Below are positions 20,361-60,685 of a stretch of DNA of 64,000 bases, one piece after another. A model generated the notes under the pieces. It ran no database searches, was not told the DNA's origin, and worked only from the letters and a program-made list of their open reading frames with translations. The number at the start of each line of letters is the position of its first letter. Position 1 is the stretch's first letter. The stretch is from Candidatus Pacearchaeota archaeon (GTDB lineage Archaea; Nanobdellota; Nanobdellia; Pacearchaeales; GW2011-AR1): NCBI GenBank assembly GCA_018303845.1, contig JAGVXH010000005.1, positions 20,105 through 84,104 on the forward strand, read 5' to 3'. The position numbers and the translations under genes were made by a program.

Positions 20361-20948
20361 ATGCCCATTACAACAGAGGAAGCCAATAAAATCAAAGAAC
20401 ACCTTCTAACCCAACTAGACAACTTCCCAGAAGACAAACGAGAACAAATCGCAGAACAAATCAATTCAATGTCAGACGAACAAATCGAAGCTTTCGTTAA
20501 ACAAAACAAACTAACTCATCTCGGTGGACAATGCATCTTCTGTTCAATTATAGCAAACAAAACCAAGTCCTACAAAATAGCCGAAGATAAAGACAACATA
20601 GCAATCCTAGAACTTATGCCAATAAGTAAAGGGCACTCTCTCATCGTACCAAAAGAACATCTAGAAAAAACCTCAGAATCAACAAACTCCCTAGTGCAAG
20701 AAGTATCAAAAAAATTAAAGAAAAAATTCTCGCCACAAGAAATCAAAATCAACGAAATAAAAATAATGGGCCATGCACTCCTGGAAATAATTCCCATATA
20801 CGGGGATGAGACCGAAAAAAGACAAGCCTCAGAAGAAGAGCTAAAATCCCTCCAAGAAGAAATACTAAAACCCTCAGAAATCAAAATAGAAAAACCTCAG
20901 GAAATCAAAATAGAAGAAATCCCAATCCTCCCTCCAAGAATACCCTAA
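20361..20948 (+). CDS. HIT-like protein with degenerate catalytic motif
   Basis: The 195-residue protein has an N-terminal helical region (1-55), then a HIT-fold domain: CIFCSIIANKTKSYKIAEDK, AILELMPISKGHSLIVPKEH and, in place of the HxHxH triad, IMGHALLEIIPIY. Only the first histidine remains; the middle, nucleophilic one is Leu and the third Glu. A Pro/Lys/Glu-rich tail follows. It therefore cannot hydrolyse nucleotides by the usual route and may bind nucleotides or protein. It ends convergent with the prepilin peptidase (4-base overlap). Confidence 0.75.
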   Translation: MPITTEEANKIKEHLLTQLDNFPEDKREQIAEQINSMSDEQIEAFVKQNKLTHLGGQCIFCSIIANKTKSYKIAEDKDNIAILELMPISKGHSLIVPKEHLEKTSESTNSLVQEVSKKLKKKFSPQEIKINEIKIMGHALLEIIPIYGDETEKRQASEEELKSLQEEILKPSEIKIEKPQEIKIEEIPILPPRIP

Positions 20949-21769
20949 ATCCCAAACAGCCCCAAAAACCAACCCTTCAAAAAAACATATCCTAAAAACG
21001 CAATCAAAAATGCCGGAACAAACGGCAACCCTTCCTTAATCATAACCCTCTTCTCCTTCCTCAATAACTCAATATCATCTAGCGACAACCCATCCCAATT
21101 CGCCTTAACAACTCTTCGTCCAACCTTAACATCTTCAACCAACCAATCCCCCTCTCGAAGTTCAAAACCACTAACTTCCCTAATCATCGAAACATTTTCG
21201 AGCCCCTTAGCAAAAACATAAAGAAACGGAAAAATAAAAAGACAAACTCCAATCAAGAAAAAAATAAAATTTTTAACACCAAAAATCATCAAAACAGATG
21301 CCAACAAAACAACTCCAACAAGCCATCTCTTTTCGCTAACCAGCCTTCCCATTTCCGCATTAATTTTATCTCGATTCAAATACCATAAAACACCAGAATA
21401 ACAAAGCCCATAGACAGATCCCGCGACCATCAAAAACAAACAAAAAATTCCAACATTAATTACCGATTCATAAAAACTAGCACCCAAAAAAAACACCGTC
21501 ATCGCAAACAACAACTTCGCATCCCCCCCAGCAAAAACCCGACCATAATAAAAAATATTCATAATAACAAACATAATTACCAATAAAAACCCAACATGAA
21601 AAATAATATCCAACTCATCTCTCAAAATTGCACCATAAAAAACAAAGACCAAACTAGAAACAAGCAAAAACAAATTCAACCAATTATCAACCTCACGCCT
21701 TTTCAAATCCTGCATACTAGCAACAACAATCCCACAAAAAAACAACCAAAACAAAAACCCAAACTCCAT
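20945..21769 (-). CDS. Prepilin peptidase (A24, archaeal FlaK/PibD/TadV type)
   Basis: This membrane aspartic peptidase cleaves class III signal peptides of archaeal pilins and archaellins. The 274-residue protein has about seven membrane helices, the first catalytic Asp in ASMQDLKRREVDNWLN (about residue 20) and the second in AGGDAKLLFAM (about 82). A soluble segment (EVSGFELREGDWLVEDVKVGRRV) lies before the last helix, as in larger archaeal homologues. It ends the long - strand pilus locus whose products carry its target motif. Confidence 0.88.
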   Translation of the reverse strand: MEFGFLFWLFFCGIVVASMQDLKRREVDNWLNLFLLVSSLVFVFYGAILRDELDIIFHVGFLLVIMFVIMNIFYYGRVFAGGDAKLLFAMTVFFLGASFYESVINVGIFCLFLMVAGSVYGLCYSGVLWYLNRDKINAEMGRLVSEKRWLVGVVLLASVLMIFGVKNFIFFLIGVCLFIFPFLYVFAKGLENVSMIREVSGFELREGDWLVEDVKVGRRVVKANWDGLSLDDIELLRKEKRVMIKEGLPFVPAFLIAFLGYVFLKGWFLGLFGI

Positions 21770-21844
21770 TTATCCCAACCTATCCTCATTAATTAAATGC
21801 ACAACAATAACAGAAATCATAATACAAAAAACAAATCTCTTTAT

Positions 21845-22042
21845 TTAATACTTTCTCTTCTTAACCTTGCCAAAACCTTTTTTCTTTTCTGACAAAACCT
21901 TCCCCATCTTATCCACCTTCTCACCCTCAACCTCATCAACATTAGCACTCCGAAACTTTCCTCCTACCTTATACCCACGATTAATCCGCTTCCTCTTCAA
22001 ATCACCCTTCGTCGTCCGCTTATCACATCCACCAAAATCCAT
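21845..22042 (-). CDS. Small basic protein in the pilus locus
   Basis: A 65-residue, strongly basic protein (TTKGDLKRKRINRGYKVGG, and the tail KKGFGKVKKRKY). No family was recognised. Its ATG overlaps the stop of the preceding pilin-like gene (TAATG), so translation is probably coupled. It may interact with nucleic acid or with the cytoplasmic face of the pilus machine; neither is shown. Confidence 0.45.
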   Translation of the reverse strand: MDFGGCDKRTTKGDLKRKRINRGYKVGGKFRSANVDEVEGEKVDKMGKVLSEKKKGFGKVKKRKY

Positions 22043-22605
22043 TACTTCAAAACCTCCACAACATACTTCCCACTTTTTCGTGTAATCAAATATTCTCTAT
22101 CAAAAACAAAATCATATTCAACGGGAAAACCAATCTTCACATCTTCCGAAACTTTAAGCAAACCTCTTTTCCCAGTTTCCTGTCTTTTCAAAACCAAACC
22201 ATCACTAACTTCCTCGACAGAATACAAAACATCTCTAAAAAAACCATTCTCATCAAATCCAGTCCCAACCTCTACCTTAGAACCTCTCCAAAACAAATCC
22301 TTCAAAATAAAATCCTTCATCTCTTGACTTAAACCCGAAACAAACTCTTTCTCAAATTTCTCCTTGTCAATCCCACTCTTCTCAACCGAGTCCAACACCA
22401 ACTCTTTTTCTCTCATCTCAAAAATATCCAACTCATCTCTAATCTCCAAAACAGCAAGCGGAGAAACTAGAGCAATACTAAGTTTATTCTGATGATTAGA
22501 ATAAGACAAAAGAACCATCCCGCATAAAACCAAAGTCAACAAAACAATAGGAATCGCCATAAAAACCCCGCCCCTTTTATCTCGACAAAAATTAACTCTA
22601 CCCAT
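22042..22605 (-). CDS. Pilin-like protein with class III signal peptide (187 aa)
   Basis: The start is the ATG at 22605, which overlaps the stop of the upstream gene; the track start at 22695 lies in a different gene. The N-terminus MGRVNFCRDKRGGVFMAIP has a KRG|G-type cleavage site before a hydrophobic helix (VLLTLVLCGMVLLSY). The rest is soluble and charged, with a central LSQEMKDFILKDLFW and a beta-rich end. Probably a minor pilin or pilus-associated subunit. Confidence 0.6.
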   Translation of the reverse strand: MGRVNFCRDKRGGVFMAIPIVLLTLVLCGMVLLSYSNHQNKLSIALVSPLAVLEIRDELDIFEMREKELVLDSVEKSGIDKEKFEKEFVSGLSQEMKDFILKDLFWRGSKVEVGTGFDENGFFRDVLYSVEEVSDGLVLKRQETGKRGLLKVSEDVKIGFPVEYDFVFDREYLITRKSGKYVVEVLK

Positions 22606-22879
22606 TCTCAAAACCTCCAGCAACAAGAGCATCATCAACATCATAATCTCCAGCGACATAAAACCGCGCCTTAACCAACCTCTCATAATCCTCATTCATA
22701 TAAATAAAAAATTCTCCCTCTTCTTCACTCTCTCCAAAATAATTAGCCAAGACAGGCTCCTCTGCAAAAATCTTAAACGGCTCACTCAAAAGAATAAATC
22801 CTCCAAGAATAATCGCAACAAGAATAATCGCAAAAAACATAGAAATAAGTGTCCCAAGTTGTCCCTTCTTACTTTTCAT
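22598..22879 (-). CDS. Pilin-like protein with class III signal peptide (93 aa)
   Basis: The N-terminus MKSKKGQLGTLISMFF has KKG|QLG before a hydrophobic helix (FAIILVAIILGGFILL). The mature part is acidic (FGESEEEGEFFIYMNEDYERL). It overlaps both neighbours (11 bases upstream, 8 downstream), typical of a coupled operon. Probably a small pilin-type subunit. Confidence 0.6.
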   Translation of the reverse strand: MKSKKGQLGTLISMFFAIILVAIILGGFILLSEPFKIFAEEPVLANYFGESEEEGEFFIYMNEDYERLVKARFYVAGDYDVDDALVAGGFENG

Positions 22880-23408
22880 AATTAATCAAAACCTCCACCT
22901 TAACAAAACCATCCCTAGTCACTCCATTCTCGAAAACAAACGCCTTATACTCATCACTAAAATAGCCAGGATTATACTTCGCAATCTTTTCAACATTCTC
23001 ATTATTCCATCCGCTAACCGCATTCCCAGTAACAACCACCTTCTCGAACAAATCCCTAACCCAAAGTAACCCCTCATCTCCATCCTTTAGATAAACTTTC
23101 CTAGCATCACTATCAACCTCAACCCCAACATAAATCCTTTCACTCTCTTCAATCCCACAATGCCTCAAAATAAAACTTCTATCTTCTTCCTTAATATTAT
23201 CCAAATTCAAAACACCCTCAGGGAATAAACACTCCACAATCGCCCTACCAAGTAATAAAGACTCAGCATCTCGAACGCTAATATCATAAGCATAATAAAC
23301 AGAAGAGGCCCCAAAAATAACAACCGCAATGGCCGAAATCAAAACCAAAACCGGAACCATCTCAACAATATCGCCAACCCCGCTTCCTCGTTTATTCATC
23401 CAAAACAT
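22869..23408 (-). CDS. Pilin-like protein with class III signal peptide (179 aa)
   Basis: The N-terminus MFWMNKRGSGVGDIVEMVP has KRG|SGV followed by a hydrophobic helix (VLVLISAIAVVIFGAS). The mature domain is mixed alpha/beta with two cysteines (ECLFPEG and RHCGIEE) that might form a disulfide, and a TGNAV sequence. The start may be 23408, 24 bases after an ATTTAAAG box, or 23399, which gives MNKRG. The promoter lies beside a 17-bp tandem repeat. Confidence 0.6.
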   Translation of the reverse strand: MFWMNKRGSGVGDIVEMVPVLVLISAIAVVIFGASSVYYAYDISVRDAESLLLGRAIVECLFPEGVLNLDNIKEEDRSFILRHCGIEESERIYVGVEVDSDARKVYLKDGDEGLLWVRDLFEKVVVTGNAVSGWNNENVEKIAKYNPGYFSDEYKAFVFENGVTRDGFVKVEVLINYEK

Positions 23409-23457
23409 CCTCCATGTTTAATCCAACTTCTTTAAATCGCCAAGCCCCCAGCGAAGC

Positions 23458-23519
23458 TGAGCTTTTCCACATCGTGAGCTTTTCCACATCGTGAGCTTTT
23501 CCACATAGTGAGCTTTTCT
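23458..23519. repeat. 17-bp tandem repeat upstream of a pilin-like gene
   Basis: Three copies of TGAGCTTTTCCACATCG (the third ends ATAG) and a partial fourth lie in the 135-bp gap between two pilin-like genes, just upstream of the TATA box for the 22869-23408 gene. Confidence 0.85.
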
Positions 23520-23543
23520 GAAAATGAAAATTTTCCTCTTTCA

Positions 23544-23903
23544 TCATTTAACTCTAACCACAAATTTATCTAAATCCTCTTCAACAAAAACTTCATTACT
23601 AGAAAAATAAGGATACCCCTTACTAGAAGGAAGCCCATCAACCTTAACATAAATTCTCCCATCTCTGACCTCGACCCCATCAACTAACCCATTCAAACTC
23701 TTTTTCACAATCTCAAAACTAAACCCACTCTCACTAGCATCAATCAAAAGCGCCAACTCTTTTTCCAAAACCTGCTGTTTAATTCCTCTCGCCTCAAGCC
23801 TTCCCTCTAGTGCAAGAAAAAAAACAGCAAATAACAATCCAACTAAAATAATCTGAATAACAGCCTTAGATAAAATATCCCCCTTCTTACCAAATCGTCT
23901 CAT
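23544..23903 (-). CDS. Pilin-like protein with class III signal peptide (119 aa)
   Basis: The start is the ATG at 23903, overlapping the previous stop as ATGA. The N-terminus MRRFGKKGDILSKAVIQII carries KKG|DIL before a hydrophobic helix (ILVGLLFAVFFLAL). The mature domain has heptad-like helix KQQVLEKELALLIDASES and a beta-rich end. Probably a minor pilin. Confidence 0.6.
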   Translation of the reverse strand: MRRFGKKGDILSKAVIQIILVGLLFAVFFLALEGRLEARGIKQQVLEKELALLIDASESGFSFEIVKKSLNGLVDGVEVRDGRIYVKVDGLPSSKGYPYFSSNEVFVEEDLDKFVVRVK

Positions 23904-24883
23904 CCGGGAATTCCCTCCCATTCATCACAAAAACCAACGCTAGCAGATTCTATCTCATCAACCCTCTTCTCATATTCAATCCAATTTTTTAATTGCAAAA
24001 ATTCCCAAAAACTCGCAGATGGACTAAAAATAAAATTATTCTGCACTTCCTTAAACGAATCATCTTTTTGTCCAGATTGAAAATAAAATAAATAGGGGAC
24101 ATATTCGCCAAACCCTTTCGACTCACCCACAACCAATTGAATACCCGCAACAACACCATAATTAATCATCAAATCTCCCTCGTCAATATTAAACCTCTCT
24201 GGCAGAGAAACATTAATACTACTCATCTTCGCCTCAAAAGTTACCCCATTAGCCCTATTCACCAAGTCAACACTAGCCCAATCCCACTTCTTACTTTCAA
24301 CACTAAAATCTTCTCCATTTAAATTAAAAGGAACAGCATTTCCAAAATTAAGAGCCGAAAAACTTTTTCCAGAATCCTGCAAATAAGAATAATAAGTAAA
24401 ACCTTCTTTCATTTTCAAATCCAAAGCATCCTTAATATTAATCTCAACCTTATTATCCCGAGCATATTTCTTCGCCTCGTCCGTAAAATGAATTCTAGCA
24501 CACGGAACACATACACTCGATTTAAAAAATTTAGCAGGAAACACATTCAAATCTCCATTCCCATAAAGGTTCCAACATTCTGCCATAGACTCTGCAATCT
24601 TCTCTTGAGCAACCTTAACATTTCTAACATCCGCCTCACTCACCTCAACAACCATCGTTTTACATTTCAAAGGGAAACTAGATTTAAATTCAAGCTCATC
24701 TGCCCCAAGTCCAGAGTCGGGAAGCGTCGCCCTCAACTGAACACTCTGCCAACAAACCTCCTTATCTCCCTCGTCACCAACCCAAAACTCCTGATAAATA
24801 AAAAAAATCGAAATAGCCAAAACCAACACTCCAAGTATCAAATACAAAAGAATCCCATACATATAGTCCCCCTTCTTATCCAT
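23900..24883 (-). CDS. Large pilin-like surface protein with class III signal peptide (327 aa)
   Basis: The N-terminus MDKKGDYMYGILLYLILG has KKG|DYM followed by a hydrophobic helix, consistent with prepilin-peptidase processing. The long extracellular part has cysteine pairs (CWQSVQ, LKCKTM, ECWNLYG, and CVPCARIHF) and a beta-rich region. I do not recognise the domain. The ATG at 24883, 25 bases after a TTTTATTAAG box, is preferred. It begins a coupled run of five pilin-like genes. Confidence 0.6.
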   Translation of the reverse strand: MDKKGDYMYGILLYLILGVLVLAISIFFIYQEFWVGDEGDKEVCWQSVQLRATLPDSGLGADELEFKSSFPLKCKTMVVEVSEADVRNVKVAQEKIAESMAECWNLYGNGDLNVFPAKFFKSSVCVPCARIHFTDEAKKYARDNKVEINIKDALDLKMKEGFTYYSYLQDSGKSFSALNFGNAVPFNLNGEDFSVESKKWDWASVDLVNRANGVTFEAKMSSINVSLPERFNIDEGDLMINYGVVAGIQLVVGESKGFGEYVPYLFYFQSGQKDDSFKEVQNNFIFSPSASFWEFLQLKNWIEYEKRVDEIESASVGFCDEWEGIPG

Positions 24884-25135
24884 AAACAAGAAACCCAAAC
24901 CAACTTAATAAAACTTACCCAGCCCAAACATCCATAAAAAACCCCAACCAAAAACCCAAAACCTCTCAACAAAAATCCGTGCTAATCCGTGAACTATTTT
25001 TTATTAACCAAACAACCTCAATCCCAAAAACGAAAATTCGCGTACATTCGCGCAAATTCACGGCTAAATAATTCTCCATCACTCCCCAAGTCCCCATTAT
25101 TTTACCAATCTACAACAAACAAAACCATCATCTCT

Positions 25136-25179
25136 CCATGAGAAATTATGCGTGTCGAAGACACCATAATTTTTTATGG
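25136..25179 (+). repeat. GAA-loop hairpin element, copy 5
   Basis: CCATGA/TTATGG outer stem, AAATTATG/CATAATTT, bulged C, GTGTC/GACAC and a GAA loop. Nearly identical to copy 7 at 52138 apart from one base in the outer stem. Confidence 0.88.
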
Positions 25180-25186
25180 AACCCAA

Positions 25187-25223
25187 TCTCTAATGTCTAA
25201 TGTCTAATCTCTAATGTCTAATC
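25187..25223. repeat. GTCTAAT tandem repeat
   Basis: Five near-identical (G)TCTAAT units immediately follow hairpin copy 5. Confidence 0.7.
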
Positions 25224-25396
25224 CTTATTCCAATCCGTGCTAGTCCGTGAGTAAATAATTAACAACCATTCCCAAAAAAATCCATGTAATCCATGTTCTA
25301 ATTTTCCCCAAGCCCACCAAGTCAACCCTTACATCACCCAAACAAAATCCGCGTAATCCGTGTAATCTGCGGCCAAATAAATAACCAAACAAAAAC

Positions 25397-25525
25397 TTAC
25401 CCAGCAGCCCTAGAAACAATATTCCGTATAGCAAAACCAACAGCAACAATAACCAGAATAACCAATATCCATTTAATAGTCTCACCCGAAACCAATTCCC
25501 CCCGCTTACTTAGTGGAAAAAACAT
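25397..25525 (-). CDS. 42-aa microprotein with class III signal-like N-terminus
   Basis: This gene is not in the ORF track. It begins MFFPLSKRGELVSGETIKW, overlapping the end of the 173-aa pilin-like gene by about 20 bases, and continues as one transmembrane helix (ILVILVIVAVGFAIRNIV) before a stop. The KRG|ELV motif resembles the prepilin peptidase sites of its neighbours. After processing it would be a very short membrane helix, perhaps a pilin-like accessory. The 81-aa track ORF in another frame is rejected. Confidence 0.5.
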   Translation of the reverse strand: MFFPLSKRGELVSGETIKWILVILVIVAVGFAIRNIVSRAAG

Positions 25526-26027
25526 AGCCTCCTCCATCTTTCCAAATCTCAACCCGACCACCCTCAACAATCTCCCATGTACCAGAACTCAAATCACTAG
25601 CATCAATACTATGCACACTGCCAACAATACTCCGAGCAGACATACTCAAATCCAAACACTCTCTACAATAATTTTGCTCATCCTCTCCATCCCAATAACA
25701 AACACAAATCACATTATCCCCAATCTTCTTATTCTTAAAATATTCCTCTCCTTCAACATCACCAAAACTAGCAACACTGCCAAAATAAACCAAATAAAAC
25801 TTCATATCCTTATCCCCCCTATCAAACATAATAACTTCGCCAACCCCGCCCTTATCCGCAATACCAACCCCTTCCTCTATAACCTTCAAATATCCCTCAC
25901 TAATTTTATCGGCTTCATCATACAAACCATAAAAACTAACCGCAAAAATAATCAAAACAGCAACAACAGCAACAGCAATAATAAGCTCAATAGCAGAATC
26001 ACTAACCACCTCTCCTCTTTTCTCCAT
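25506..26027 (-). CDS. Pilin-like protein with class III signal peptide (173 aa)
   Basis: The N-terminus MEKRGEVVSDSAIELIIAV has KRG|EVV before a hydrophobic helix (AVVAVLIIFAVSFYGLY). The mature domain holds a cysteine cluster (NVICVCYWDGEDEQNYCREC) that may bind metal or form disulfides. The ATG at 26027 overlaps the stop of the lysozyme-domain gene, so the two are coupled. Confidence 0.6.
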   Translation of the reverse strand: MEKRGEVVSDSAIELIIAVAVVAVLIIFAVSFYGLYDEADKISEGYLKVIEEGVGIADKGGVGEVIMFDRGDKDMKFYLVYFGSVASFGDVEGEEYFKNKKIGDNVICVCYWDGEDEQNYCRECLDLSMSARSIVGSVHSIDASDLSSGTWEIVEGGRVEIWKDGGGYVFSTK

Positions 26028-27850
26028 CAACATCGCCTATCCAAAAATTTAGAAATAACACTGGCCCTATAAACCTCATCAAAAAAATACTTACCAAGTC
26101 TATAAGTCCCCTCATCTCCACTCTCAATCCAACTAGAACCATTCCACGTAACAAGCAACACCGGATAATATTCCAAATCAACTCTATGAAAAGCATCATT
26201 AACCCAAAACTCAAAATCACTTACAGTCTTTCCTGCCCCAGACTGCTTCAACCCAAACTTAGATTCTCCCTTTGAAAAACTTAAAACTGCCTTCCCTTCA
26301 CTTTGCTCAACTCCAACAACAAACTCTTCACCCTTCAAAACAACTTTCTCCCCAGCAAAAGACTTCTTCAATGCCTCAATATCCGAACCAGAAACACTAG
26401 AAGAAACAAGAAGTCTCGTACGCAATCCAGCAAAAATATCTTTCAATCTCGCCAAATCAGCCTCACTATCCAACTCACCAGAGTCCCCATAATTCTCAGC
26501 CGAAACAAAATTTTCATTTTCCAAAACCTTGTAAAACGCAACCTCATACCCAGCATCCTCCTGACTCATCTTATTTATCCCAAATCTCCATTCCCTCCAA
26601 ACATTATCAACATCTCCTTTGTGCCTTCCATAAATCTCCGCAAGCATTTTTTCCACAACAATCTTATACATCATCTTATCCTTATCGCTATTCAAATCCC
26701 CACTTCCCCCATAATCATATCTAGAGACATCCTCCCCAGTCTTAGGATCCTTCTTATCCCTAGGCATATCCTCTCCCCCCCATTTCAAAAAAGTATTTCC
26801 CTGCTCAACAAACCTTTCAAGATATCGCTTCTCCCTGTCATCCCAATTCATTCCTTCCTTTTTCAAATACCCTTGAGCCAAACTTTTAGTCAACTGAAGC
26901 GGGCCATAAGCCGTAGAAGAAGAACCATCTATCTTTGTCCTAATCCAAGGATCATAGCCATCTTTCAACCGACCGCTATTATAATCAAAATATCCCCTAT
27001 GTTCCGCAGCCATAACAGCATCATAAAGAGTCTCCGTTTTCAGATACTCACTCTTCACCTTCTTATCTTCAACTTTCTCTCCAAAAAGCAAACTCTCTAA
27101 TCCCTTGCCCTCACCCTTCAAGTACTCAACCCCAACCTTATTCTCAGAAAGTCTCCAATTAACCTTATCATCATTAAAAATATCTTTAACCTCATCATAA
27201 AACAAAGTCAAAGCCTCATCGTCATTATCAATCTCCCTAACAAACTTTCCATTTTTCCAAAATTCCCAAATACCATTTTGCCAACGTAATTCAACATTCG
27301 CATCTCCACCACTTCCATCCCCAATTAAACTAAACTGCATAGTGGAGCCTTCATCCATTAAATCCCTAACATCAACACTTTGCAAAATACCAATCCCGAC
27401 ATGATAAGCCTCCCAATCAAACAACGCAGAATCTTCACTACCAACAATCAAATTATTATATTCTACCCATTCCCCATTTGTCAATTTCCTAAACTTTCCT
27501 TTCATCATCTCATAATCATCCAAACCACCTCCCTCAAATGTACAAGTCCTATCACGACACTGCTTAAACCCAATATCGTCGTCTTTAATACCCAACTTCT
27601 TCAACATCTCACTTCCCAAAACAAAATCTGAAATCCTATAATCGATACACTCCTCAAAAGGCCCTCCGTTATTACCTAGCGACATCAACATACCTAAAAC
27701 CTCATTTGCCTTTCCCCCAATCTCCTCTATTTCAGGAATTATCCCATTCCCAATAAGAAAAGAAAGAAAAAGCAAAACCACAACTAAAATAATAATTTTA
27801 ATAAGTCTGTTAAAGGCCTCATTCCCCTTTTTCCCATTCAGCAAATTCAT
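26027..27850 (-). CDS. Pilus-locus protein with class III signal peptide and lysozyme-like domain
   Basis: The 607-residue protein starts MNLLNGKKGNEAFNRLI (KKG|NEA) followed by a hydrophobic helix (residues 17-35). A long central region precedes a segment at about 275-430 with AAEHRGYFDY, DPWIRTKIDGSSSTAYGPLQ and LTKSLAQGYLKK. It resembles lysozyme/transglycosylase-type domains of phage tails and endolysins, where the Glu (here E283) is catalytic and the STAYGPxQLT motif lines the cleft. A lysozyme-like enzyme exported like a pilin is unusual for an archaeon. Its target, perhaps peptidoglycan or a host surface polymer, is unknown. It overlaps both neighbours. Confidence 0.65.
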   Translation of the reverse strand: MNLLNGKKGNEAFNRLIKIIILVVVLLFLSFLIGNGIIPEIEEIGGKANEVLGMLMSLGNNGGPFEECIDYRISDFVLGSEMLKKLGIKDDDIGFKQCRDRTCTFEGGGLDDYEMMKGKFRKLTNGEWVEYNNLIVGSEDSALFDWEAYHVGIGILQSVDVRDLMDEGSTMQFSLIGDGSGGDANVELRWQNGIWEFWKNGKFVREIDNDDEALTLFYDEVKDIFNDDKVNWRLSENKVGVEYLKGEGKGLESLLFGEKVEDKKVKSEYLKTETLYDAVMAAEHRGYFDYNSGRLKDGYDPWIRTKIDGSSSTAYGPLQLTKSLAQGYLKKEGMNWDDREKRYLERFVEQGNTFLKWGGEDMPRDKKDPKTGEDVSRYDYGGSGDLNSDKDKMMYKIVVEKMLAEIYGRHKGDVDNVWREWRFGINKMSQEDAGYEVAFYKVLENENFVSAENYGDSGELDSEADLARLKDIFAGLRTRLLVSSSVSGSDIEALKKSFAGEKVVLKGEEFVVGVEQSEGKAVLSFSKGESKFGLKQSGAGKTVSDFEFWVNDAFHRVDLEYYPVLLVTWNGSSWIESGDEGTYRLGKYFFDEVYRASVISKFLDRRC

Positions 27851-27987
27851 CGCCCAAACCTCAACAAATCCTTAATGCTACCTAAAAGCTCCACGCCTTT
27901 CCCACTAAGCAAAAACCCAACGGCCCAAACCATCACAACTAAAATAATCACAAAAATAATCATCTTAACAATCTCCTCTATTTCCAT
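27847..27987 (-). CDS. 46-aa membrane microprotein in the pilus locus
   Basis: This gene is not in the ORF track. It starts MEIEEIVKMIIFVIILVVM, has one membrane helix (IIFVIILVVMVWAVGFLL) and a short basic tail (SIKDLLRFGR). Its stop overlaps the ATG of the lysozyme-domain gene (ATGA), which argues that it is real and translationally coupled. Function unknown; it may be a structural partner of that protein. Confidence 0.5.
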   Translation of the reverse strand: MEIEEIVKMIIFVIILVVMVWAVGFLLSGKGVELLGSIKDLLRFGR

Positions 27988-28073
27988 ACATCGTCAACAA
28001 AAAACAAATTAATAAAGATTCCTAATATCTTCAAGAACAAATTACTCTACAAAAAAACAAATACTACTAAATT

Positions 28074-28466
28074 TTATGAAGCAGCTTTAACTTCCGGCTC
28101 GCAAGTAAACTTTTCATCACATTTCTTAAATCCTAAACCAGAAGGAAGCAATACACCATCAATAAAGCCACCAACACTGAATTGATGGCAACTTCCACTA
28201 ATCTTCTTCAAATCACCTTTATCATCAAAAAACCTTAAATCTTTCTTCTCGCTACACCAAGAACTTTTCTCATTGTTATTACAATCATTTTCACAATCTG
28301 CAATCCTCAACTGAACATTAGATCCACTAGTCCTTCCAGCAATCTGATCCCACATATTAGTCCATCCAGTACTAAATCCCCAAATCAACAAAACCAAAAC
28401 AACAATCCCTAAAACAATAGCAACAATAGTTCCAAGCGTCATCTCCTGTCCTTTCTTATTCACCAT
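28074..28466 (-). CDS. Candidate major pilin with class III signal peptide
   Basis: The 130-residue protein starts MVNKKGQEMTLGTIVAIV, a KKG|QEM site before a hydrophobic helix that would form the filament core (IVLGIVVLVLLIWGF). The mature domain contains six cysteines (DCENDCNN, SWCSEK, GSCHQF, KKCDEKFTC), likely disulfides. It has its own strong TATA box and sits between the TadC-like gene and the lysozyme-like gene, so it may be the most expressed subunit. Confidence 0.65.
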   Translation of the reverse strand: MVNKKGQEMTLGTIVAIVLGIVVLVLLIWGFSTGWTNMWDQIAGRTSGSNVQLRIADCENDCNNNEKSSWCSEKKDLRFFDDKGDLKKISGSCHQFSVGGFIDGVLLPSGLGFKKCDEKFTCEPEVKAAS

Positions 28467-28489
28467 CTTAACAATCCAACAACTTCATT

Positions 28490-28499
28490 ATTTATAAAA
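28490..28499 (-). promoter_or_regulatory. TATA box of the candidate major pilin
   Basis: GTTTTATAAATAATG, centred about 28 bases before the ATG at 28466. It is the clearest promoter in the locus. Confidence 0.65.
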
Positions 28500-28532
28500 C
28501 TTCCCAAACCCTTTGCGGCATCAATAAATTGC

Positions 28533-30710
28533 CTAAGCGAGCCCAGCCAAAGCAACCGCCCCAACAATCGTCAACCCAATAATAGAACCAGCCGCAACAA
28601 CCAAATACATAATCATAGAAACCTTCAAATTCTTACCGCCTTCCGAAGTCATCTGAATCGGATCCCGCCCACTCTTAATAGTCACCAAAGTAGAGGTTAA
28701 AATAAAAACGACCTCAATCAAATAAACACCGACAACAATCTGCAACCAATAAGTCGGAATCATCTTCGTTACATCAAAAATCGCCAAAATCCCACTAACT
28801 CCACCAGCCTCACCAATAGCTCCTCCGCTTAATCCTCCCGAACTAAACATTGAATTCAAAGCCGAAAGAATTGTAGTAATCATCCCAGACAACCCAACAA
28901 TAATCCCAGAGAGAAGCGGCGCCAAGAAAGTCATATTACTTTTCATATCCGAAATAATTTCAGCCAACAAATCATTCAACCTATCATTAATCTTCTTAAT
29001 ACTCTTAACATAATCACTAATCGACATCAATGACCGAGCAGCAACCTGCAACCCCTTCTTCACCGACTCAACCAAAATCTTCATGCTAGTAGCAACAAGT
29101 TGCGAAGGATAAAAAATAACAGCTCCCCTCTTCGGATCAAAAAGCGCCCTTTCCAAACTCATTCCAAGTTGCCCAATATTCTCATTCACAATTTTGAAGA
29201 ACCCTTCAGTTGCAGTGCCTTTAACGCTTCCAGAAACTTTAGCAAAAGCAATCTCCGCCGGACTCCCGTCCCCAATCCTATTTCCCAACTGGAACAAAGA
29301 CGATGTAAACTCAGCTTCAACTTCCTTGTATTTATTTCTCGTAACTAAAATTTCCTCAGTTCTCTCTTTTGCCCCCACAACAAAAATAACAGCAATAGCA
29401 GCAGGAATACAAAGACTCATCAAAAGAGCACCACTACCAAAAGGACCAGACAAATTTCCAGCCGAATCAGTCAAAATCCCAAACACGCCTCCTCCGCCCA
29501 AAAACCCAAGCCCAATAGAGGACCAAGCATAATCCCTTGTAGTCCCAAGCCAAATCGGAACAGGTGTATATCGCCAAAGAAAAGGAATTAGCCCAATAAC
29601 AAAAAGCGGAAAAGCCAAAACCGCACCCTTCCAATATCCAGCATTACTCTTATATTTAGAATAAAGCGGTGTCTTCTGCAAAACTCCAGACTCACCATAC
29701 CCACCAGGACGCTTCATCATAACATTTTCAGTTAAAGCAATCACCATAAACGGAATCAACACATTAAAAATCAAAAGCACATGATACCAAGCAATCGCAC
29801 CACCAAGCATAGTAGAAGCCAAAGGCAAAATCGCAAGAGCCAGCGTAGGCAAAACAATCCCAAGCATATAAACATTAGTAAGCGGAGCCTTAGCCTCATG
29901 TGTATACTTAAGCATCTTATCATAAACCCCATCCAAAATAACCTGCAAACTTTTTTCCAAAGTAGCAATTCGCCGCGCCTCATCAGGTTCATATAAACTC
30001 GATTCAATCAAATGAAACGCCTCGACAAATTCCAAACTATAATCTTTCCATCGAAGTAAATAATTATCAATAGACTCTTTTATAGTAGAAAACTTCCCTA
30101 CCTCGACATCCCAAAACACCTTACGAAAATCAGTACTCAAAGGTGCCCGCAAATGCTCCGAAGCAAAAGCCACAGCCTTCTCAAAGTTACTAGTATGCTT
30201 CATATAAATCACAATATACAAAATAGCAGGAACCATCTCAGCCGAAGCACTAAGTCTCCATCGCAAAGCAAGCCTTTCCGGAGTCTTCGAAGAATAAAAA
30301 AACAAAAAGATTGAAAAGACGAAAACCAAAAACAAAAACATCATAGAAAAAACACCAGTCAATAACCACACCGCAACAAAAAAAGCAATCCCACCAAAAA
30401 GCGAAAGAAACAAAAGCATAGTAGAAAAAACCAAAACCTCACCAGCTGTAACATTCAAATGCGCAATGTCAATAGCCTCATCAATCCGTGCCTTATCTTT
30501 TTCACCAACCTTAATAGAAAGAATATTCCCCATCGACTTACACCATCTCTCATACCGCGAAAATTCAGGCGCCATCTCTCCTTGAAACTTCTCGTAACTC
30601 TTAGAGAATCCCGCCCCCCGTCCCCCATCCCCCACAGCCTTATCATATCCCTTCATCTGCCTTTCTATCTTCGCCCCATACTTATTCAAAATATCTTCAG
30701 TACTAACCAC
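28533..30710 (-). CDS. Archaeal TadC/FlaJ-like pilus assembly membrane protein
   Basis: This 725-residue platform protein anchors the assembly ATPase. It has a long cytoplasmic N-terminus, two membrane-helix pairs flanking T2SF-like domains (ASAEMVPAILYIVIYMKHTSNFEKAV at about 160 and its second counterpart after 440), and a C-terminal cluster of helices ending GSIIGLTIVGAVALAGLA. It is larger than archaellar FlaJ, with two T2SF halves as in archaeal Tad-type systems. It starts with GTG at 30710, preceded by a strong GGAGGTG ribosome site. Confidence 0.8.
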   Translation of the reverse strand: MVSTEDILNKYGAKIERQMKGYDKAVGDGGRGAGFSKSYEKFQGEMAPEFSRYERWCKSMGNILSIKVGEKDKARIDEAIDIAHLNVTAGEVLVFSTMLLFLSLFGGIAFFVAVWLLTGVFSMMFLFLVFVFSIFLFFYSSKTPERLALRWRLSASAEMVPAILYIVIYMKHTSNFEKAVAFASEHLRAPLSTDFRKVFWDVEVGKFSTIKESIDNYLLRWKDYSLEFVEAFHLIESSLYEPDEARRIATLEKSLQVILDGVYDKMLKYTHEAKAPLTNVYMLGIVLPTLALAILPLASTMLGGAIAWYHVLLIFNVLIPFMVIALTENVMMKRPGGYGESGVLQKTPLYSKYKSNAGYWKGAVLAFPLFVIGLIPFLWRYTPVPIWLGTTRDYAWSSIGLGFLGGGGVFGILTDSAGNLSGPFGSGALLMSLCIPAAIAVIFVVGAKERTEEILVTRNKYKEVEAEFTSSLFQLGNRIGDGSPAEIAFAKVSGSVKGTATEGFFKIVNENIGQLGMSLERALFDPKRGAVIFYPSQLVATSMKILVESVKKGLQVAARSLMSISDYVKSIKKINDRLNDLLAEIISDMKSNMTFLAPLLSGIIVGLSGMITTILSALNSMFSSGGLSGGAIGEAGGVSGILAIFDVTKMIPTYWLQIVVGVYLIEVVFILTSTLVTIKSGRDPIQMTSEGGKNLKVSMIMYLVVAAGSIIGLTIVGAVALAGLA

Positions 30711-30794: not shown

Positions 30795-33700
30795 CTATGA
30801 CTTCAATTTCAAAAATTGTTTTTTAACATTCTTCCAATAAATTATTACAAAAATCAACAAGACAACAAGAACAACAATCAATCCCGCAATAAATCTATTC
30901 CCGCCTATCGTATCAAAAACTACATTCCCAGTAATAATTCCCTTATCCATTTCCTCCGTCTTCACAACAGGCATTTCTTTGGCAGGTACCACGTCGACAC
31001 CAGCCACAGCTCCAGTAGATGCAACCGGAACACTCTCACTAATAGACGTCAAAAGAATCTCAGCCCTACCAGCAGAAACACTCTTAAGATAAACATCCAA
31101 ATCATAAACTCCATTACCATCAACATCCACCTTCTTTGTCTGCCCGGGAACAAGGTCAAAAGTAACAGGGGTACTAGAAACCGTAATCGTCACCTTATCG
31201 CCAGATATACTATCGACTTTCAATGTATGACTCTGTCCAGCCAAATTAAAATCAACCTTGTAACCTCTGCCTAAAGAAATATCATACCCTGTAGAAAGAT
31301 CTGTTGCAGAAGGACTATATGTGGGATAGCTTCCACTACTACCTGAAGAACCAGAAGAAGCAGCATCTACAGTATAAGTAGTTTCAGCTAATACCGAATT
31401 TCCAGCATAATCAACAGCGGTACAATTCGTAGTAATGGTCCCAGCAACAGAAGTGGAGGGATTCGTAGTATAAGTGATCGAACTTACTCCCGAAGATGCA
31501 TCAGTTGCAGAACAGGTACAAGTAACGGTGCCACCGATTTGAACAGCAGAATCGCTACAGGCAAAAGTTATAACAGGATCAACACTATCTAAAAGAATAG
31601 TATAACGCCCACTGTTATTCGCATTTCCAAGAGTATCATTTGAAGTTGCATTATAATAATAAACTCCATCAGTCAGATTAGTAAAATTAATAGATGTGGG
31701 GGAACTTGTACCCAGGCTTGAATTAATTAAAACTACAGAGGAATTATATAATCTAATAAAAATAGTACTCAATGTCCCTGAATCTGCAGCCGTTACATTA
31801 ATAAAAATATTTGAGGTGGAAACATTAGAATTATTCGCACTAGGAGACACAAATACTATAGAAGAAGGACTCGTGGTATCTATATTAATAGTTCTCGTAG
31901 CCGTAGAATTAATATTCCCAGCAATGTCTACAATAGTCACATTGTAAGTATGAGTAGTATCACTTAACCCTGTCCAATTAATTGTATGAGTAGCATCAGT
32001 GTATGTCGTAGTATTAACAATTCCCGTCGTATTATATAATCTAAATGTTATATTAACTTCATTTACTTCTGTAACACTCGCATTGACATAAATATTAGAG
32101 ACGGACACATTAGCATTATCAACAGAAGTTCCAGTTCCATAATCAATTGCTGGAGTCGTAGAATCTATTTGAACAACATATGAATCATTTAGCCCAAATG
32201 TACCCAACGTATCATTTGCATAAACAAAAATTGTATTATTCCCATCTGCTAATCCCGTCAAAGCAATTAAGCTAGTATTACACCAACCAGAAACATATGC
32301 AATTGTTTGGTTAGTTCCATTTGCATTAACAACACAAGCACTTCTGCCAGTACCTTCATTGGTAAGAGAAATATTTAACGTTAAAGTTTGCAAATTTGTC
32401 TTTGTTGTTCCATTTACATAAAGTGGCAAAGAAATTCCAGGAGGAGTTGAAGTAACATTACTAACTGAAATAGTATTAGCGATTAATGTAACTTCTTTTT
32501 GCCCCAATGCTCTTCCAGTCAAAACTGCACCGTTCTGTAACGCAATAGTTGTTGTATCCGGCCCGCCTAAAATATTTCCTTTAAACTGAGAAGTTGTTCC
32601 AAGCGTTGTTGTTCCAGCAACTGCCCAAAAAATATTACTTGCTTGTGCGCCACCAGAAAGAACTACACTTGTAGCAGAACTAATATCCAAATTTCCAGAT
32701 ATACTAAAAATCCATACATCGTCAGAATCCCCATAAAGTGTAACATCTGTAGGTATTGTTACTCCGGTAGTCCAATCATAAAAACCCGCCACCAAAGTCA
32801 TTCCTCCAATATTTCCTGTACCTAATTCATTAGCAACAGGATTTGTTCTTCCATTGGCATCCGTCCAAGCAGCTTCCATTGCACTTACAGCAGCAGTCAA
32901 ATCAGCAGGAGTTGTACAATTTAAAGTACTATAGTCAGCCGCATAAACATTCCCTGACACTAAAGACGAAGTTGAAAAACATTCTGAAGAATCTAAAGAT
33001 AATCCAAATCCTTGAATAAAAGATGCAGCAGCTGGGCTCACTCCAATATCTCCAATAATAGCAGTAGTTCCAGTCGTAGTTATTTGAGTCTTTGAAAGAA
33101 TTGTAAAATTCGCCGCTGTTCCCAAATCAACTGTTGCTTGTGTATATAACGAACCATTTATTTGAACAACATAAGAGTCATTGAGGCCAAAATTATTAAG
33201 CGTATCATTTGCATAAACATTAATTGTGTGGTTCCCATTAGCTAGGTTTGTTAAAGCAATCGAAGTAGTATTACACCAACCAGAAACATATGAAATTGTT
33301 TGATTTGTTCCATTTACATTAATAATGCAAACACTTATGTTCGAACTAGCATCTACAGCTGAAATATTAAGTGCCAAAGTTTGAAAACTTGTTTTTGTTG
33401 TTGCATTTACATATCCTGGCAATGCGATAACTGGTCCTGTCGTATCATTTACCGTTACTCCTATAGTTGAAACAACAGTCCATCCAGTAGAATTCGTTGT
33501 TGTAATAGTAAAATTATAATTTCCTGGACTTGAAGCAGTAGCATTAAACCAAAAATATGCCAATGTTCCATTTTCTACCAAGCTAACAGTATCATTATTC
33601 CAAATTAAAGAAACAGTAGTATTAGAAAATAAAGAGCTAGTAACATTTGTTCCGTTCGAATCTGCCGCAAAAGAAAATACACTAGGAAATGTAATATTAA

Positions 33701-33908
33701 CTCCGGTTATATTATCAAGTGTATCTATATTACTAACCGTTATATTATAAACCGACTCAACAGATTCATTAACAGAAAATGCACTAAGGCCACTAGTTGG
33801 CGCAACAGTCAAAGCTGCAAAAGCAAAAGTAATAGATAAAAAAATTCCCAAAAATAAAAAAATTCCCAAAAATAAATTATAATTATTTTTAATTAATCTT
33901 TTTTTCAT
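30795..33908 (-). CDS. Large anchored adhesin with ice-binding-type DUF3494 domain and Ig-like repeats
   Basis: The 1037-residue protein has a signal peptide (MKKRLIKNNYNLFLGIFLFL), Ig-like modules, a DUF3494 domain at about 257-482 (VDLGTAANFTILSKTQI, GDIGVSP, and the end TGRALGQKEVTLIANTIS), further Ig-like modules, a Ser-rich linker and a C-terminal membrane anchor (GLIVVLVVLLIFVIIYW) with a basic tail. Two near-identical Ig modules (about 166-251 and 494-580) flank the DUF3494 domain, as if it was inserted. DUF3494 proteins bind ice or act in adhesion. The coding DNA is less strand-biased than its neighbours. Confidence 0.85.
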   Translation of the reverse strand: MKKRLIKNNYNLFLGIFLFLGIFLSITFAFAALTVAPTSGLSAFSVNESVESVYNITVSNIDTLDNITGVNITFPSVFSFAADSNGTNVTSSLFSNTTVSLIWNNDTVSLVENGTLAYFWFNATASSPGNYNFTITTTNSTGWTVVSTIGVTVNDTTGPVIALPGYVNATTKTSFQTLALNISAVDASSNISVCIINVNGTNQTISYVSGWCNTTSIALTNLANGNHTINVYANDTLNNFGLNDSYVVQINGSLYTQATVDLGTAANFTILSKTQITTTGTTAIIGDIGVSPAAASFIQGFGLSLDSSECFSTSSLVSGNVYAADYSTLNCTTPADLTAAVSAMEAAWTDANGRTNPVANELGTGNIGGMTLVAGFYDWTTGVTIPTDVTLYGDSDDVWIFSISGNLDISSATSVVLSGGAQASNIFWAVAGTTTLGTTSQFKGNILGGPDTTTIALQNGAVLTGRALGQKEVTLIANTISVSNVTSTPPGISLPLYVNGTTKTNLQTLTLNISLTNEGTGRSACVVNANGTNQTIAYVSGWCNTSLIALTGLADGNNTIFVYANDTLGTFGLNDSYVVQIDSTTPAIDYGTGTSVDNANVSVSNIYVNASVTEVNEVNITFRLYNTTGIVNTTTYTDATHTINWTGLSDTTHTYNVTIVDIAGNINSTATRTINIDTTSPSSIVFVSPSANNSNVSTSNIFINVTAADSGTLSTIFIRLYNSSVVLINSSLGTSSPTSINFTNLTDGVYYYNATSNDTLGNANNSGRYTILLDSVDPVITFACSDSAVQIGGTVTCTCSATDASSGVSSITYTTNPSTSVAGTITTNCTAVDYAGNSVLAETTYTVDAASSGSSGSSGSYPTYSPSATDLSTGYDISLGRGYKVDFNLAGQSHTLKVDSISGDKVTITVSSTPVTFDLVPGQTKKVDVDGNGVYDLDVYLKSVSAGRAEILLTSISESVPVASTGAVAGVDVVPAKEMPVVKTEEMDKGIITGNVVFDTIGGNRFIAGLIVVLVVLLIFVIIYWKNVKKQFLKLKS

Positions 33909-37105: not shown

Positions 37106-39397
37106 TCAAACCCCTAATTTCTTCGCTTCAACTTCAAGCCACCTCTTCCACTTCGCAAAAACGATATCTCCTTTCGGCACTCCAACATCCCCAGTCACCT
37201 CATCGCTAATCTGATGAAACGCATTGTTAGACATAACCGTAAAATCCCCTTCTAAAATCTCAGGCAGATTCTCTCTAATAGAAAAATCTACACTCTCTTG
37301 CTTAATCTTAGCACGAAGCAAAACATTATCCCAAACCGCATCCCAGTCCCCAGCCCAACCCTTAACATTACTTGCAATCTCTTTCATAATCTCCGAATCC
37401 CCATTCATCAAATCATCAGTCGCCTCCAACTTATCTCGCTTAACATCGTACTTCATCAAATCAACAAATCCCCCTTCGGCCAAAGGGTCCTTGTCCCAAT
37501 GCTTCCGAACCTCACTAATAGACAAAACCCGTCGCCAAGAATGAAGCCCATCCGCAGTCTTAATCGGATTAGCGACAACAATAATATCCGTCGCCTTAAA
37601 ACTCGTAACCGGAACATCCAAGTCATTACAAACTCTATCAAATACAGAATATGGACTTCCACCATGAATCGTACCAGCAACAACATTTGCAAGAGCCCCA
37701 ACCCTCATCGCCTCATACAAAGCCTTCGCCTCACTAGAACGAATCTCTCCAACAATTAAAGACGAATCGCCCAAACGAAGACTCGCCCGAATCCCTTCCT
37801 CTGCAGAAACCTCCGACGATTCACCCCCCAAAGCCGACCGAACCTTCATTGACAAAATATCATAATCAAGCTTCCTCATCGCAGACACGGGCAACTCCAG
37901 AGTATCTTCAATAGTAATAATTCTCTTATTGGGCATAATCTCCAAAAGCAAAGCCCCTAAAAGCGAAGTCTTTCCCGACGACCTAGTCCCAGCAACAAGC
38001 ATCGTCCGTGCCCCATCAATCATAAAACTCAAAAGCCCCGCACTCAAACTATCCATCATCCCATTCTTAATAAAAAGCGGCAAAGTCCAAGGCTTACTTC
38101 TATGTCTTCTCAAAGTATAAGCAAGCCCACCAGCGGACAAAGGCTCCTGAATAATCGCAACTCTCGCGCTCACATCCCCAAGCTCCAAATTCGTATCTAA
38201 TATAGGGTTAGCCTCATCAAGTGCCCGCCCACTAATCATCCTAAACTTCGCAGCCCAAGAATCCGCATCCTCCATCGACGGAACCAAATTACTAACACAC
38301 TCACCAAATTCATTATGCCTAACAAAAATCTTAGACAAACTAACCGGAGCATTAACCATAATATCCTGCAAATCCTCATCTTGCAACAACACTTCTAAAA
38401 CTCCAAACCCAATCGTATGCCGAACCAAAATATTCGCAAGCTTCTTCAAATCCCCATAACTCAAAACAACATTCTTGCTTCCAGCCAAATCACTAATCAA
38501 ATCCCGAGCAACATTATAAAAAACTTGCCGCGTTCTCTCAGGATCGCTAAATTCTTCAGCAGTCGGTCGATGCTCAATTAAAACATTCCGCGCCAAATTT
38601 AAAAGCATATGATGGTCCTCATCTAACAAATATTCAGGCGGAGACAAATGATAAACCAACTTTGCCTTATTCGGAACTTTAAAAATACTAACCAAGCTCT
38701 CATCGCTCCCACTCGCAATGCTATACTGCTTCACAATCTCGGCATCCGTCGGAATCTTCGCAACCATCCGCGTGAAAGTAAAATTCGGCATAATATCCGC
38801 ACGAAAAACCTCTCCATATATCGCCCTATCTCCAACAGAATACGAATCAAAAAAATCCTTCAACCGTCGAACAAGCTCCAAATCCTCAAACCATCCTTCC
38901 AACTTCTCCAGCAACCGAACATAATCACTCTCCCTACTCCTCACACTTTGCCCCTTACCCCTCTTCACCTGTTGTGCCTTCAACCGAAACAATTTCCCAC
39001 GCAACTCACGATAAGCCAAAATCGGATCCACAGATAATAACTCATTAACAATCCTATTCAAAAAAACATAGGCCTCTTCATAATCCTCGCCAAGTCCGCT
39101 AAGTCTCTCGGAAGAAACAATCCGCTCCTGCTTCATTAAAAAAGTAACTAATGCAGCAACCCCCTGCAACATTCTAACCTGCGAAAAATCATAAGAATAA
39201 TTTCTCTGCTGCACAAAAACAATCCGCGCAATATTAGACTCCTCGCGAAGCGCATCAATTGTCCGTCCCATCACTTCCGAAAAATCAACAAGCGACGGAA
39301 CAATTCGGTCACCCAAATAATTCACATACATCACATTCTCTCCACTGTCCCGAACAACCTCATAAGAATACAAAGCCGCGTCCCCCTTAAACATCAT
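37106..39397 (-). CDS. Type II/IV secretion ATPase of archaeal pilus type (TadA/FlaI-like)
   Basis: This hexameric ATPase powers pilus assembly. The 763-residue protein has a large N-terminal domain, then Walker A AGTRSSGKTSLLGALLLE (about 460), the Asp box TIEDTLELPVSAMRKLDYD, Walker B SLIVGEIRSSEAKALYEAMRVG and the His box TIHGGSPYSVFDRV. It is longer than FlaI because of N- and C-terminal extensions. It lies 6.4 kb from the TadC-like platform, separated by the adhesin island, but belongs with it by function. Confidence 0.88.
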   Translation of the reverse strand: MMFKGDAALYSYEVVRDSGENVMYVNYLGDRIVPSLVDFSEVMGRTIDALREESNIARIVFVQQRNYSYDFSQVRMLQGVAALVTFLMKQERIVSSERLSGLGEDYEEAYVFLNRIVNELLSVDPILAYRELRGKLFRLKAQQVKRGKGQSVRSRESDYVRLLEKLEGWFEDLELVRRLKDFFDSYSVGDRAIYGEVFRADIMPNFTFTRMVAKIPTDAEIVKQYSIASGSDESLVSIFKVPNKAKLVYHLSPPEYLLDEDHHMLLNLARNVLIEHRPTAEEFSDPERTRQVFYNVARDLISDLAGSKNVVLSYGDLKKLANILVRHTIGFGVLEVLLQDEDLQDIMVNAPVSLSKIFVRHNEFGECVSNLVPSMEDADSWAAKFRMISGRALDEANPILDTNLELGDVSARVAIIQEPLSAGGLAYTLRRHRSKPWTLPLFIKNGMMDSLSAGLLSFMIDGARTMLVAGTRSSGKTSLLGALLLEIMPNKRIITIEDTLELPVSAMRKLDYDILSMKVRSALGGESSEVSAEEGIRASLRLGDSSLIVGEIRSSEAKALYEAMRVGALANVVAGTIHGGSPYSVFDRVCNDLDVPVTSFKATDIIVVANPIKTADGLHSWRRVLSISEVRKHWDKDPLAEGGFVDLMKYDVKRDKLEATDDLMNGDSEIMKEIASNVKGWAGDWDAVWDNVLLRAKIKQESVDFSIRENLPEILEGDFTVMSNNAFHQISDEVTGDVGVPKGDIVFAKWKRWLEVEAKKLGV

Positions 39398-39880: not shown

Positions 39881-39881
39881 C

Positions 39882-40568: not shown

Positions 40569-40571
40569 AAA

Positions 40572-41554: not shown

Positions 41555-41592
41555 ATCCTAAACCATCAATCCATATTTATATATCTTTCCAA

Positions 41593-60646: not shown

Positions 60647-60685
60647 CAATCCGTGTAATCCGTATAATCTGCGGCTAAATTATTT
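60647..60685. repeat. ATCCGTG/ATCTGCG array before dnaE's end
   Basis: CAATCCGTGTAATCCGTATAATCTGCGGCTAAATTA, the mixed form of the dispersed family, in the gap between the secreted protein and dnaE. Confidence 0.7.

What the first reader, a model, noticed from the sequence alone, without database searches (positions are those of the whole stretch)
20945..30710. A pilus locus with nine candidate class III signal peptides
Between 22.0 and 28.5 kb, nine - strand proteins start with a short charged N-terminus, a K[KR]G motif and a hydrophobic helix (KKGQLG, KRGSGV, KRGGVF, KKGDIL, KKGDYM, KRGELV, KRGEVV, KKGNEA, KKGQEM). A prepilin peptidase and TadC/FlaJ-like protein are in the same run and a matching ATPase lies at 37-39 kb. 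This is a large, multi-subunit pilus or secretion machine with many unfamiliar subunits.
Basis: partly seen in the sequence, partly recalled or inferred. Interest (0 to 1): 0.7.

Follow-up and report, generated by a model that had tools for sequence, protein, structure and literature searches.

The report
Archaeal pilus bearing probable wall-cutting enzymes
This is a conserved type IV pilus gene cluster of a tiny uncultured archaeon (Pacearchaeota) in which one pilus subunit carries an extra domain that looks like a bacterial-cell-wall-cutting enzyme, and related species carry clear wall-cutting enzymes on the same pilus, which suggests that these archaea use a pilus to work on bacteria.

Summary
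The organism is a Pacearchaeota-type DPANN archaeon. The platform is present in 132/138 genomes of the family and 271/279 of the phylum; gene order is conserved and class III starts are concentrated there (p ~ 3e-51). This is a real type IV filament system with about ten pilin-like subunits.

Its pilin scaffold is shared across the genus, but here and in one sister species it holds a ~195-residue insert related to Vibrio phage proteins, with a lysozyme-like Glu...AYGxxQ motif. At P3 or neighbouring pilins, other Pacearchaeota carry Pfam-certified murein hydrolases (SLT, Phage_lysozyme2, Amidase_2, M23, glucosaminidase) or GH39. Best reading: a type IV pilus displaying interchangeable cell-wall hydrolases, probably aimed at bacteria. 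Fold and activity of the window's own insert are not proven: AlphaFold models were poor and the profile match to SLT is weak.

The parts
37106..39397 (-). Assembly ATPase (FlaI/CpaF type, 763 aa)
   Evidence: Pfam T2SSE 4.2e-16; PDB: archaeal GspE 8.7e-28, CpaF 1.3e-25, FlaI 2.1e-21
28533..30710 (-). Divergent FlaJ/TadC-type platform protein (725 aa)
   Evidence: Universal in family (132/138) and phylum (271/279); profile match to canonical platforms P 5e-6; not hit by Pfam T2SSF
28074..28466 (-). P1: class III subunit (KKGQEM...FSTGW, 130 aa)
   Evidence: Conserved among relatives
27847..27987 (-). P2: 46-aa single-helix protein MEIEEIVKM
   Evidence: Conserved position in genus
26027..27850 (-). 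P3: modular class III subunit (KKGNEA, 607 aa)
   Evidence: Scaffold shared by six genus members; insert only here and in G129/L039
26483..27064 (-). P3 insert (residues ~263-456), phage-related, lysozyme-like; candidate catalytic Glu283 and AYGPLQLT at 314
   Evidence: tblastn to Zobellviridae phages 4e-7; E conserved; SLT profile score above 200/200 shuffles for the two archaeal copies; no Pfam hit above cut-off; AF2 low confidence
25506..26027 (-). P4: class III subunit (KRGEVV, 173 aa)
25397..25525 (-). P5: 42-aa mini class III subunit (KRGELV)
   Evidence: 38-48-aa counterparts in the same place in relatives
23900..24883 (-). P6: class III subunit (KKGDYM, 327 aa)
   Evidence: Found in 45 of 102 loci by tblastn
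23544..23903 (-). P7: class III subunit (KKGDIL, 119 aa)
22869..23399 (-). P8: class III subunit (KRGSGV, 176 aa)
22598..22879 (-). P9: class III subunit (KKGQLG, 93 aa)
22042..22605 (-). P10: class III subunit (KRGGVF, 187 aa from the internal ATG)
21845..22042 (-). P11: 65-aa basic cytosolic-looking protein (DLKRKR...GYK.GGKFR)
   Evidence: same position in relatives
20945..21769 (-). Prepilin peptidase (A24, 274 aa), the only A24 hit in the genome

Best explanation
A type IV filament machine (ATPase, divergent platform, A24 peptidase) assembles about ten small class III subunits into a surface pilus or pseudopilus. The large subunit P3 is a modular pilin whose scaffold is conserved and whose inserted domain is swapped between species. 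In this genome the insert is a phage-related, lysozyme-like domain, probably a murein hydrolase; in relatives P3 and other subunits (P4, P7, P8, P9) carry SLT transglycosylase, phage-tail lysozyme, M23 endopeptidase, amidase or glucosaminidase. Displayed on the filament, the enzyme would loosen the wall of a bacterial partner or prey at the contact point. Shown here: gene order, class III motifs, modularity of P3, and hydrolase domains in relatives. Inferred: cleavage, filament assembly, enzymatic activity of this insert, and a bacterial target (archaea have no murein).
For: Conserved locus: 132/138 family genomes, order in about 40 loci. Motif enrichment p 3e-51. P3 insertion boundaries are clean in a six-member alignment. 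Hydrolase-bearing subunits inside the locus in eight other genomes, mostly over Pfam cut-offs: SLT in P3 (G002), P7 (G106, G064) and P8 (G078, at the cut-off); Amidase_2 in P8 (G025, G064) and P9 (G043); glucosaminidase and M23 together in record L136; Phage_lysozyme2 in G011, whose two hits are the only strong ones in 181 genomes. GH39 in P3 of G175. Catalytic motifs present in SLT, amidase and M23 copies. Insert relation to phage proteins, invariant Glu and AYGxxQ, SLT profile score above all 200 shuffles for the two archaeal copies. Murein-degrading enzymes are known from Pacearchaeota (PMC8204110, PMC11537232) and archaeal ones can kill bacteria (PMC12352652).
Against: The window's insert has no Pfam, NCBIfam or PDB hit that assigns a function. 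AlphaFold models of P3 and of the insert are poor (mean pLDDT 60 and 50) and Foldseek finds nothing. With phage sequences added, the SLT match weakens (2 of 200 shuffles reach it; phage alone not significant). Most loci examined show no recognisable hydrolase. Most SLT proteins of the family lie outside the locus. No filament, cleavage or activity has been observed.
Confidence: 0.6

Rival explanations
1. An ordinary adhesion pilus: class III subunits build a filament, and the P3 insert is a binding (adhesin) domain descended from a phage virion protein that has lost or never had enzyme activity.
For: The insert is in only 2 of 200 genomes of the order and has no assigned enzyme family. Bacterial modular pilins mostly carry binding domains (PMC8179133). 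A DUF3494 surface protein lies between ATPase and platform.
Against: All certified extra domains in big subunits of these loci are glycan or murein hydrolases, apart from one serpin-family hit beside a locus. Glu and AYGxxQ are kept in archaeal and phage copies.
Confidence: 0.22
2. A secretion (type II-like) pseudopilus that pushes hydrolases and other exoproteins out, the subunits being pump parts rather than a long surface fibre.
For: Many minor-type subunits of very different size (38 to 600+ aa); no single abundant major pilin is obvious. Giant secreted SLT proteins exist elsewhere in these genomes (PMC8204110).
Against: Enzymes are fused to the subunits themselves, which suits display better than export; no secretin or outer membrane is expected in these archaea.
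Confidence: 0.12
3. The K[KR]G starts are generic membrane anchors; the proteins are unrelated envelope proteins that happen to sit together.
For: About 24% of anchored proteins outside the interval also carry [KR][KR][GA].
Against: 79% inside versus 24% outside, p 3e-51; fixed order next to the genome's only A24 peptidase.
Confidence: 0.04

Closest known systems
Archaeal type IV pili (census in PMC4858521: methanogen Epd-type and euryarchaeal systems)
   Same: T2SSE ATPase, TadC/FlaJ platform, A24 peptidase, several class III pilins in one locus including several predicted minor pilins.
   Different: Platform too divergent for Pfam T2SSF; subunits have no relation to PilA or known pilin families by Pfam. 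That census could not identify cognate pilins for a nanoarchaeal ATPase clade; whether this ATPase belongs to that clade was not tested.
Bacterial modular pilins (PilB/PilC of Streptococcus sanguinis, PMC8179133)
   Same: Small pilin module plus a grafted functional domain, interchangeable between species.
   Different: Archaeal; domains are mostly murein hydrolases rather than lectin/vWA adhesins; several different subunits of one locus accept the graft.
Giant murein-transglycosylase proteins of Pacearchaeota and Woesearchaeota (fam00969, PMC8204110)
   Same: Same lineage, same predicted substrate (bacterial murein).
   Different: Those are secreted giants of up to 3,000 aa encoded elsewhere, not pilins; here the enzymes ride on pilus subunits.
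Zobellviridae Vibrio phage VpV262 ORFW and NVP1034O_27
   Same: 25-32% identity to the P3 insert, same Glu...AYGxxQIT motif.
   Different: Unannotated phage proteins at the end of the structural block; not pilins.

Membership tests
Type IV filament (archaeal T4P) | Secretion/assembly ATPase of the T2SSE family | tested here: met
   Pfam 4.2e-16; PDB FlaI/CpaF/GspE
Type IV filament (archaeal T4P) | FlaJ/TadC/PilC-type membrane platform | tested here: met
   Pfam T2SSF negative; profile-profile P 5e-6, 283 columns, against the genome's canonical platforms
Type IV filament (archaeal T4P) | Class III signal peptidase (A24) | tested here: met
   PF01478 7.5e-9 over cut-off; single copy in genome
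Type IV filament (archaeal T4P) | Subunits with class III signal peptides | tested here: met
   Sequence motif and enrichment only; no dedicated predictor, no proteomics
Type IV filament (archaeal T4P) | Visible filament made of the subunits | not testable with these tools
   Uncultured organism
Archaellum | FlaH (KaiC-like) and archaellin genes in the locus | tested here: not met
   No KaiC-like or archaellin hit among the locus proteins scanned; a KaiC/FlaH-like ORF, judged by eye, sits instead beside the C2 system
Modular pilin | N-terminal pilin module plus a domain not specific to T4P | tested here: met
   P3 alignment with clean insertion; insert related to phage proteins
SLT/lysozyme superfamily (P3 insert) | Match to a curated SLT or lysozyme profile | tested here: not met
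   No Pfam or NCBIfam hit over cut-off
SLT/lysozyme superfamily (P3 insert) | Catalytic Glu followed by (A)xGxxQ | tested here: met
   Glu283 and AYGPLQLT, kept in the sister species and in phage proteins
SLT/lysozyme superfamily (P3 insert) | Lysozyme fold | tested here: inconclusive
   AF2 mean pLDDT 50-60, no Foldseek match; weak profile match to SLT

The most novel reading that the evidence does not exclude
Pacearchaeota carry a conserved pilus whose subunits are a swappable rack of murein hydrolases, which would be a contact weapon or wall-opening device that these host-dependent archaea use on bacteria, with the enzyme domain replaced between species (here by a phage virion enzyme) as the bacterial partner changes.
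Probability: 0.4. Interest if true: 0.85.

Novelty: new variant of a known kind. Interest (0 to 1): 0.62.

Why it matters
Whether Pacearchaeota live on bacteria is an open question. Enzymes that cut bacterial walls, fused to the subunits of a pilus conserved in the whole family, give a concrete and testable contact mechanism and a list of candidate proteins. They would also extend the modular-pilin idea from adhesins in bacteria to wall hydrolases in archaea, and would supply a pilin set for a DPANN system whose subunits have been hard to identify.

Tried and rejected
PDB sequence searches with P3, the insert and the phage homologue gave nothing. AlphaFold2 on full P3 (6 sequences) and on the insert (3 sequences, the phage one partly misaligned by MAFFT) gave low confidence, and Foldseek on both gave no usable match. 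IMG/VR scans for relatives of the insert found only VpV262 itself. Pfam SusD (0.0016, below cut-off) for the insert was set aside as chance. GH39 or GH5 in the window's P3: no. Chance origin of the motifs: rejected. Archaellum: rejected (no FlaH or archaellins in the locus). Bacterial contamination as source of the hydrolase subunits: rejected, since they sit between conserved locus genes and share pilin N-termini.
Full report
Observation. Genes overlap or nearly touch (for example 27847-27850, 26027, 25506-25525, 23900-23903, 22869-22879 and 22598-22605), as in an operon, except for a 513-base non-coding gap at 24884-25396 that holds copies of a dispersed repeat. Two further small genes belong to the run: a 46-aa one-helix protein (27847-27987) and a 65-aa basic protein (21845-22042). 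The A24 peptidase is a sound Pfam match and the only A24 hit in this genome (80% complete). The ATPase at 37106-39397 is a FlaI/CpaF-type T2SSE protein.

The platform. The 725-aa protein is not recognised by Pfam's T2SSF and has no PDB relative by sequence. A profile built from 102 relatives does match the two canonical platform loci of the same genome, collinearly and with P 5e-6 over 283 columns. It is therefore a divergent FlaJ/TadC platform. The genome has three ATPases and three platform loci (contigs C2, C4 and this one) but one recognised prepilin peptidase.

Who has it. Named relatives are Candidatus Pacearchaeota and Nanoarchaeota MAGs; the closest is archaeon isolate SI039_bin30, 83% identical in the platform. 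The platform occurs in 132 of 138 genomes of the family and 271 of 279 of the phylum. In about 40 20-kb loci and 80 contig loci the usual order is platform, several class III subunits, small basic protein, A24 peptidase, HIT protein on the other strand. A minority (for example L075, L078) have platform and ATPase facing each other with class III genes on the far side. Among 102 distinct loci, 79% of N-terminally anchored proteins inside the interval carry [KR][KR][GA] before the helix against 24% outside. Relatives often have A instead of G.

Subunits. In the window's genus the set P1-P10 can be followed by position: P1 (KKGQ..FSTGW), P2 (45-46 aa), P3 (large), P4 (~170), P5 (38-48 aa), P6 (~300), P7 (~117), P8 (~170), P9 (~95), P10 (~185). 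P1 and P6 are the most widely detectable by sequence (44 and 45 of 102 loci by tblastn).

P3 is modular. An alignment of P3 from six genus members shows a common N-terminal pilin part (to about residue 260) and a common C-terminal part (from about 456). The window and its relative G129 have a clean insertion of about 195 residues between them (the two inserts are 46% identical). Another genus member, G175 (L081), has a GH39/GH5-type glycoside hydrolase behind the same pilin N-terminus. L079 has a short Cys-rich piece and others have nothing.

What the insert is. It matches proteins of Zobellviridae Vibrio phages (32% identity, E 4e-7; VpV262 5e-3) that lie at the end of the structural gene block and are unannotated. 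A gap-tolerant alignment puts Glu283 of P3 (AAEHRG) on the Glu of the phage ETGG motif, followed by an invariant [ST]AYGxxQ[IL]T. This is the arrangement of lysozyme/SLT active sites (general knowledge). Profile comparison of the two archaeal inserts with a 34-sequence SLT alignment from the same family scores above all 200 column-shuffled controls, and the aligned columns are those motifs; glucosaminidase, amidase and phage-lysozyme profiles do not match. Adding phage sequences weakens the match (2 of 200 shuffles reach it) and the phage sequences alone are not significant. No curated family is matched above cut-off and structure prediction failed. I call it lysozyme-like, probably a murein hydrolase, at about 0.65.

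The pattern in relatives. Pfam scans of 128 large subunits or neighbours from these loci and family-wide domain searches, followed by reading the loci, give these in-locus subunits: G002 P3 with SLT; G106/L126 P7 with SLT; G064/L214 P7 with SLT next to P8 with Amidase_2; G078/L215 P8 with SLT (exactly at the cut-off); G025/L115 P8 with Amidase_2; G043/L216 P9 with Amidase_2; L136 P4 with glucosaminidase and P3 with M23; G011/L072 P3 with Phage_lysozyme2. Catalytic motifs are intact where checked (SLT QES, GLxQ and YNG; amidase H/E/H; M23 HxGxD and HxH). Both strong PF18013 matches in 181 genomes are in one pilus locus, and 3 of 17 Amidase_2 matches are in the locus, which makes up roughly 1% of a genome. 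The same enzyme type appears on different subunits and different enzymes appear on the same subunit, so grafting probably happened repeatedly; no domain trees were built.

Mechanism. The ATPase and platform would assemble class III subunits after A24 cleavage; a large modular subunit is best placed at or near the tip, as argued for bacterial modular pilins (PMC8179133). A displayed hydrolase would cut murein on contact. Archaea have no murein, so a bacterial target is the natural reading; scavenging of dead sacculi is also possible. Pacearchaeota are already known for giant murein-transglycosylase proteins and suspected bacterial partners (PMC8204110, PMC11537232), and archaeal peptidoglycan hydrolases can kill bacteria (PMC12352652, whose main text has no occurrence of pilus or pilin). 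The 2016 census of archaeal pili could not find cognate pilins for a nanoarchaeal ATPase clade (PMC4858521). I found no paper among those searched that links murein hydrolases to archaeal pilins; the library is incomplete.

Verdict. The core machine is a member of a known kind; the hydrolase-bearing subunits make it a new variant. Cleavage, assembly and enzyme activity remain to be shown.

Noticed in passing
window 39491-41937: Next to the ATPase lie two coiled-coil genes (129 and 228 aa, + strand) and three ~115-165-aa multi-helix membrane proteins (- strand). They recur beside the ATPase (129-aa protein in 58 of 81 ATPase-bearing loci, usually within 300 bases), so they may be unknown parts of the machine.
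   Followed up: partly
window 30795-33908: A 1037-aa surface protein with an ice-binding-like DUF3494 domain (2e-62) and Ig-like domains sits between ATPase and platform; not seen at that place in the other loci inspected.
   Followed up: no
G000 contig C3:6387-6617 (about 13.5 kb before the window): The genome also encodes an SLT domain in a 2345-aa open frame, of the giant murein-transglycosylase type known from Pacearchaeota.
   Followed up: no
window 25279-25363, 52050-52257, 60648-60665: Dispersed short repeat ACACGGATTACGCGGATT: five matches with up to 3 mismatches against 0.02 expected, two of them in the gap between P5 and P6.
   Followed up: partly
G000 contigs C2 (~214-217.5 kb) and C4 (~34.6-38.8 kb): Two further, canonical ATPase + platform loci in the same genome; only one A24 peptidase is recognised, so it may serve all three systems.
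   Followed up: partly
L118:6516-7553, L118:8748-10091, L097:8371-9654: Other subunit-like proteins with C-terminal domains that look by eye like GATase-like (L118) and C39-peptidase-like (L097) folds; Pfam gave no hit for the two tested.
   Followed up: partly
L094:9254-10528: Probable source of a Serpin family hit (5.8e-118) in the Pfam scan, about 4.7 kb downstream of the platform; member identity inferred from length only and class III status unclear.
   Followed up: no
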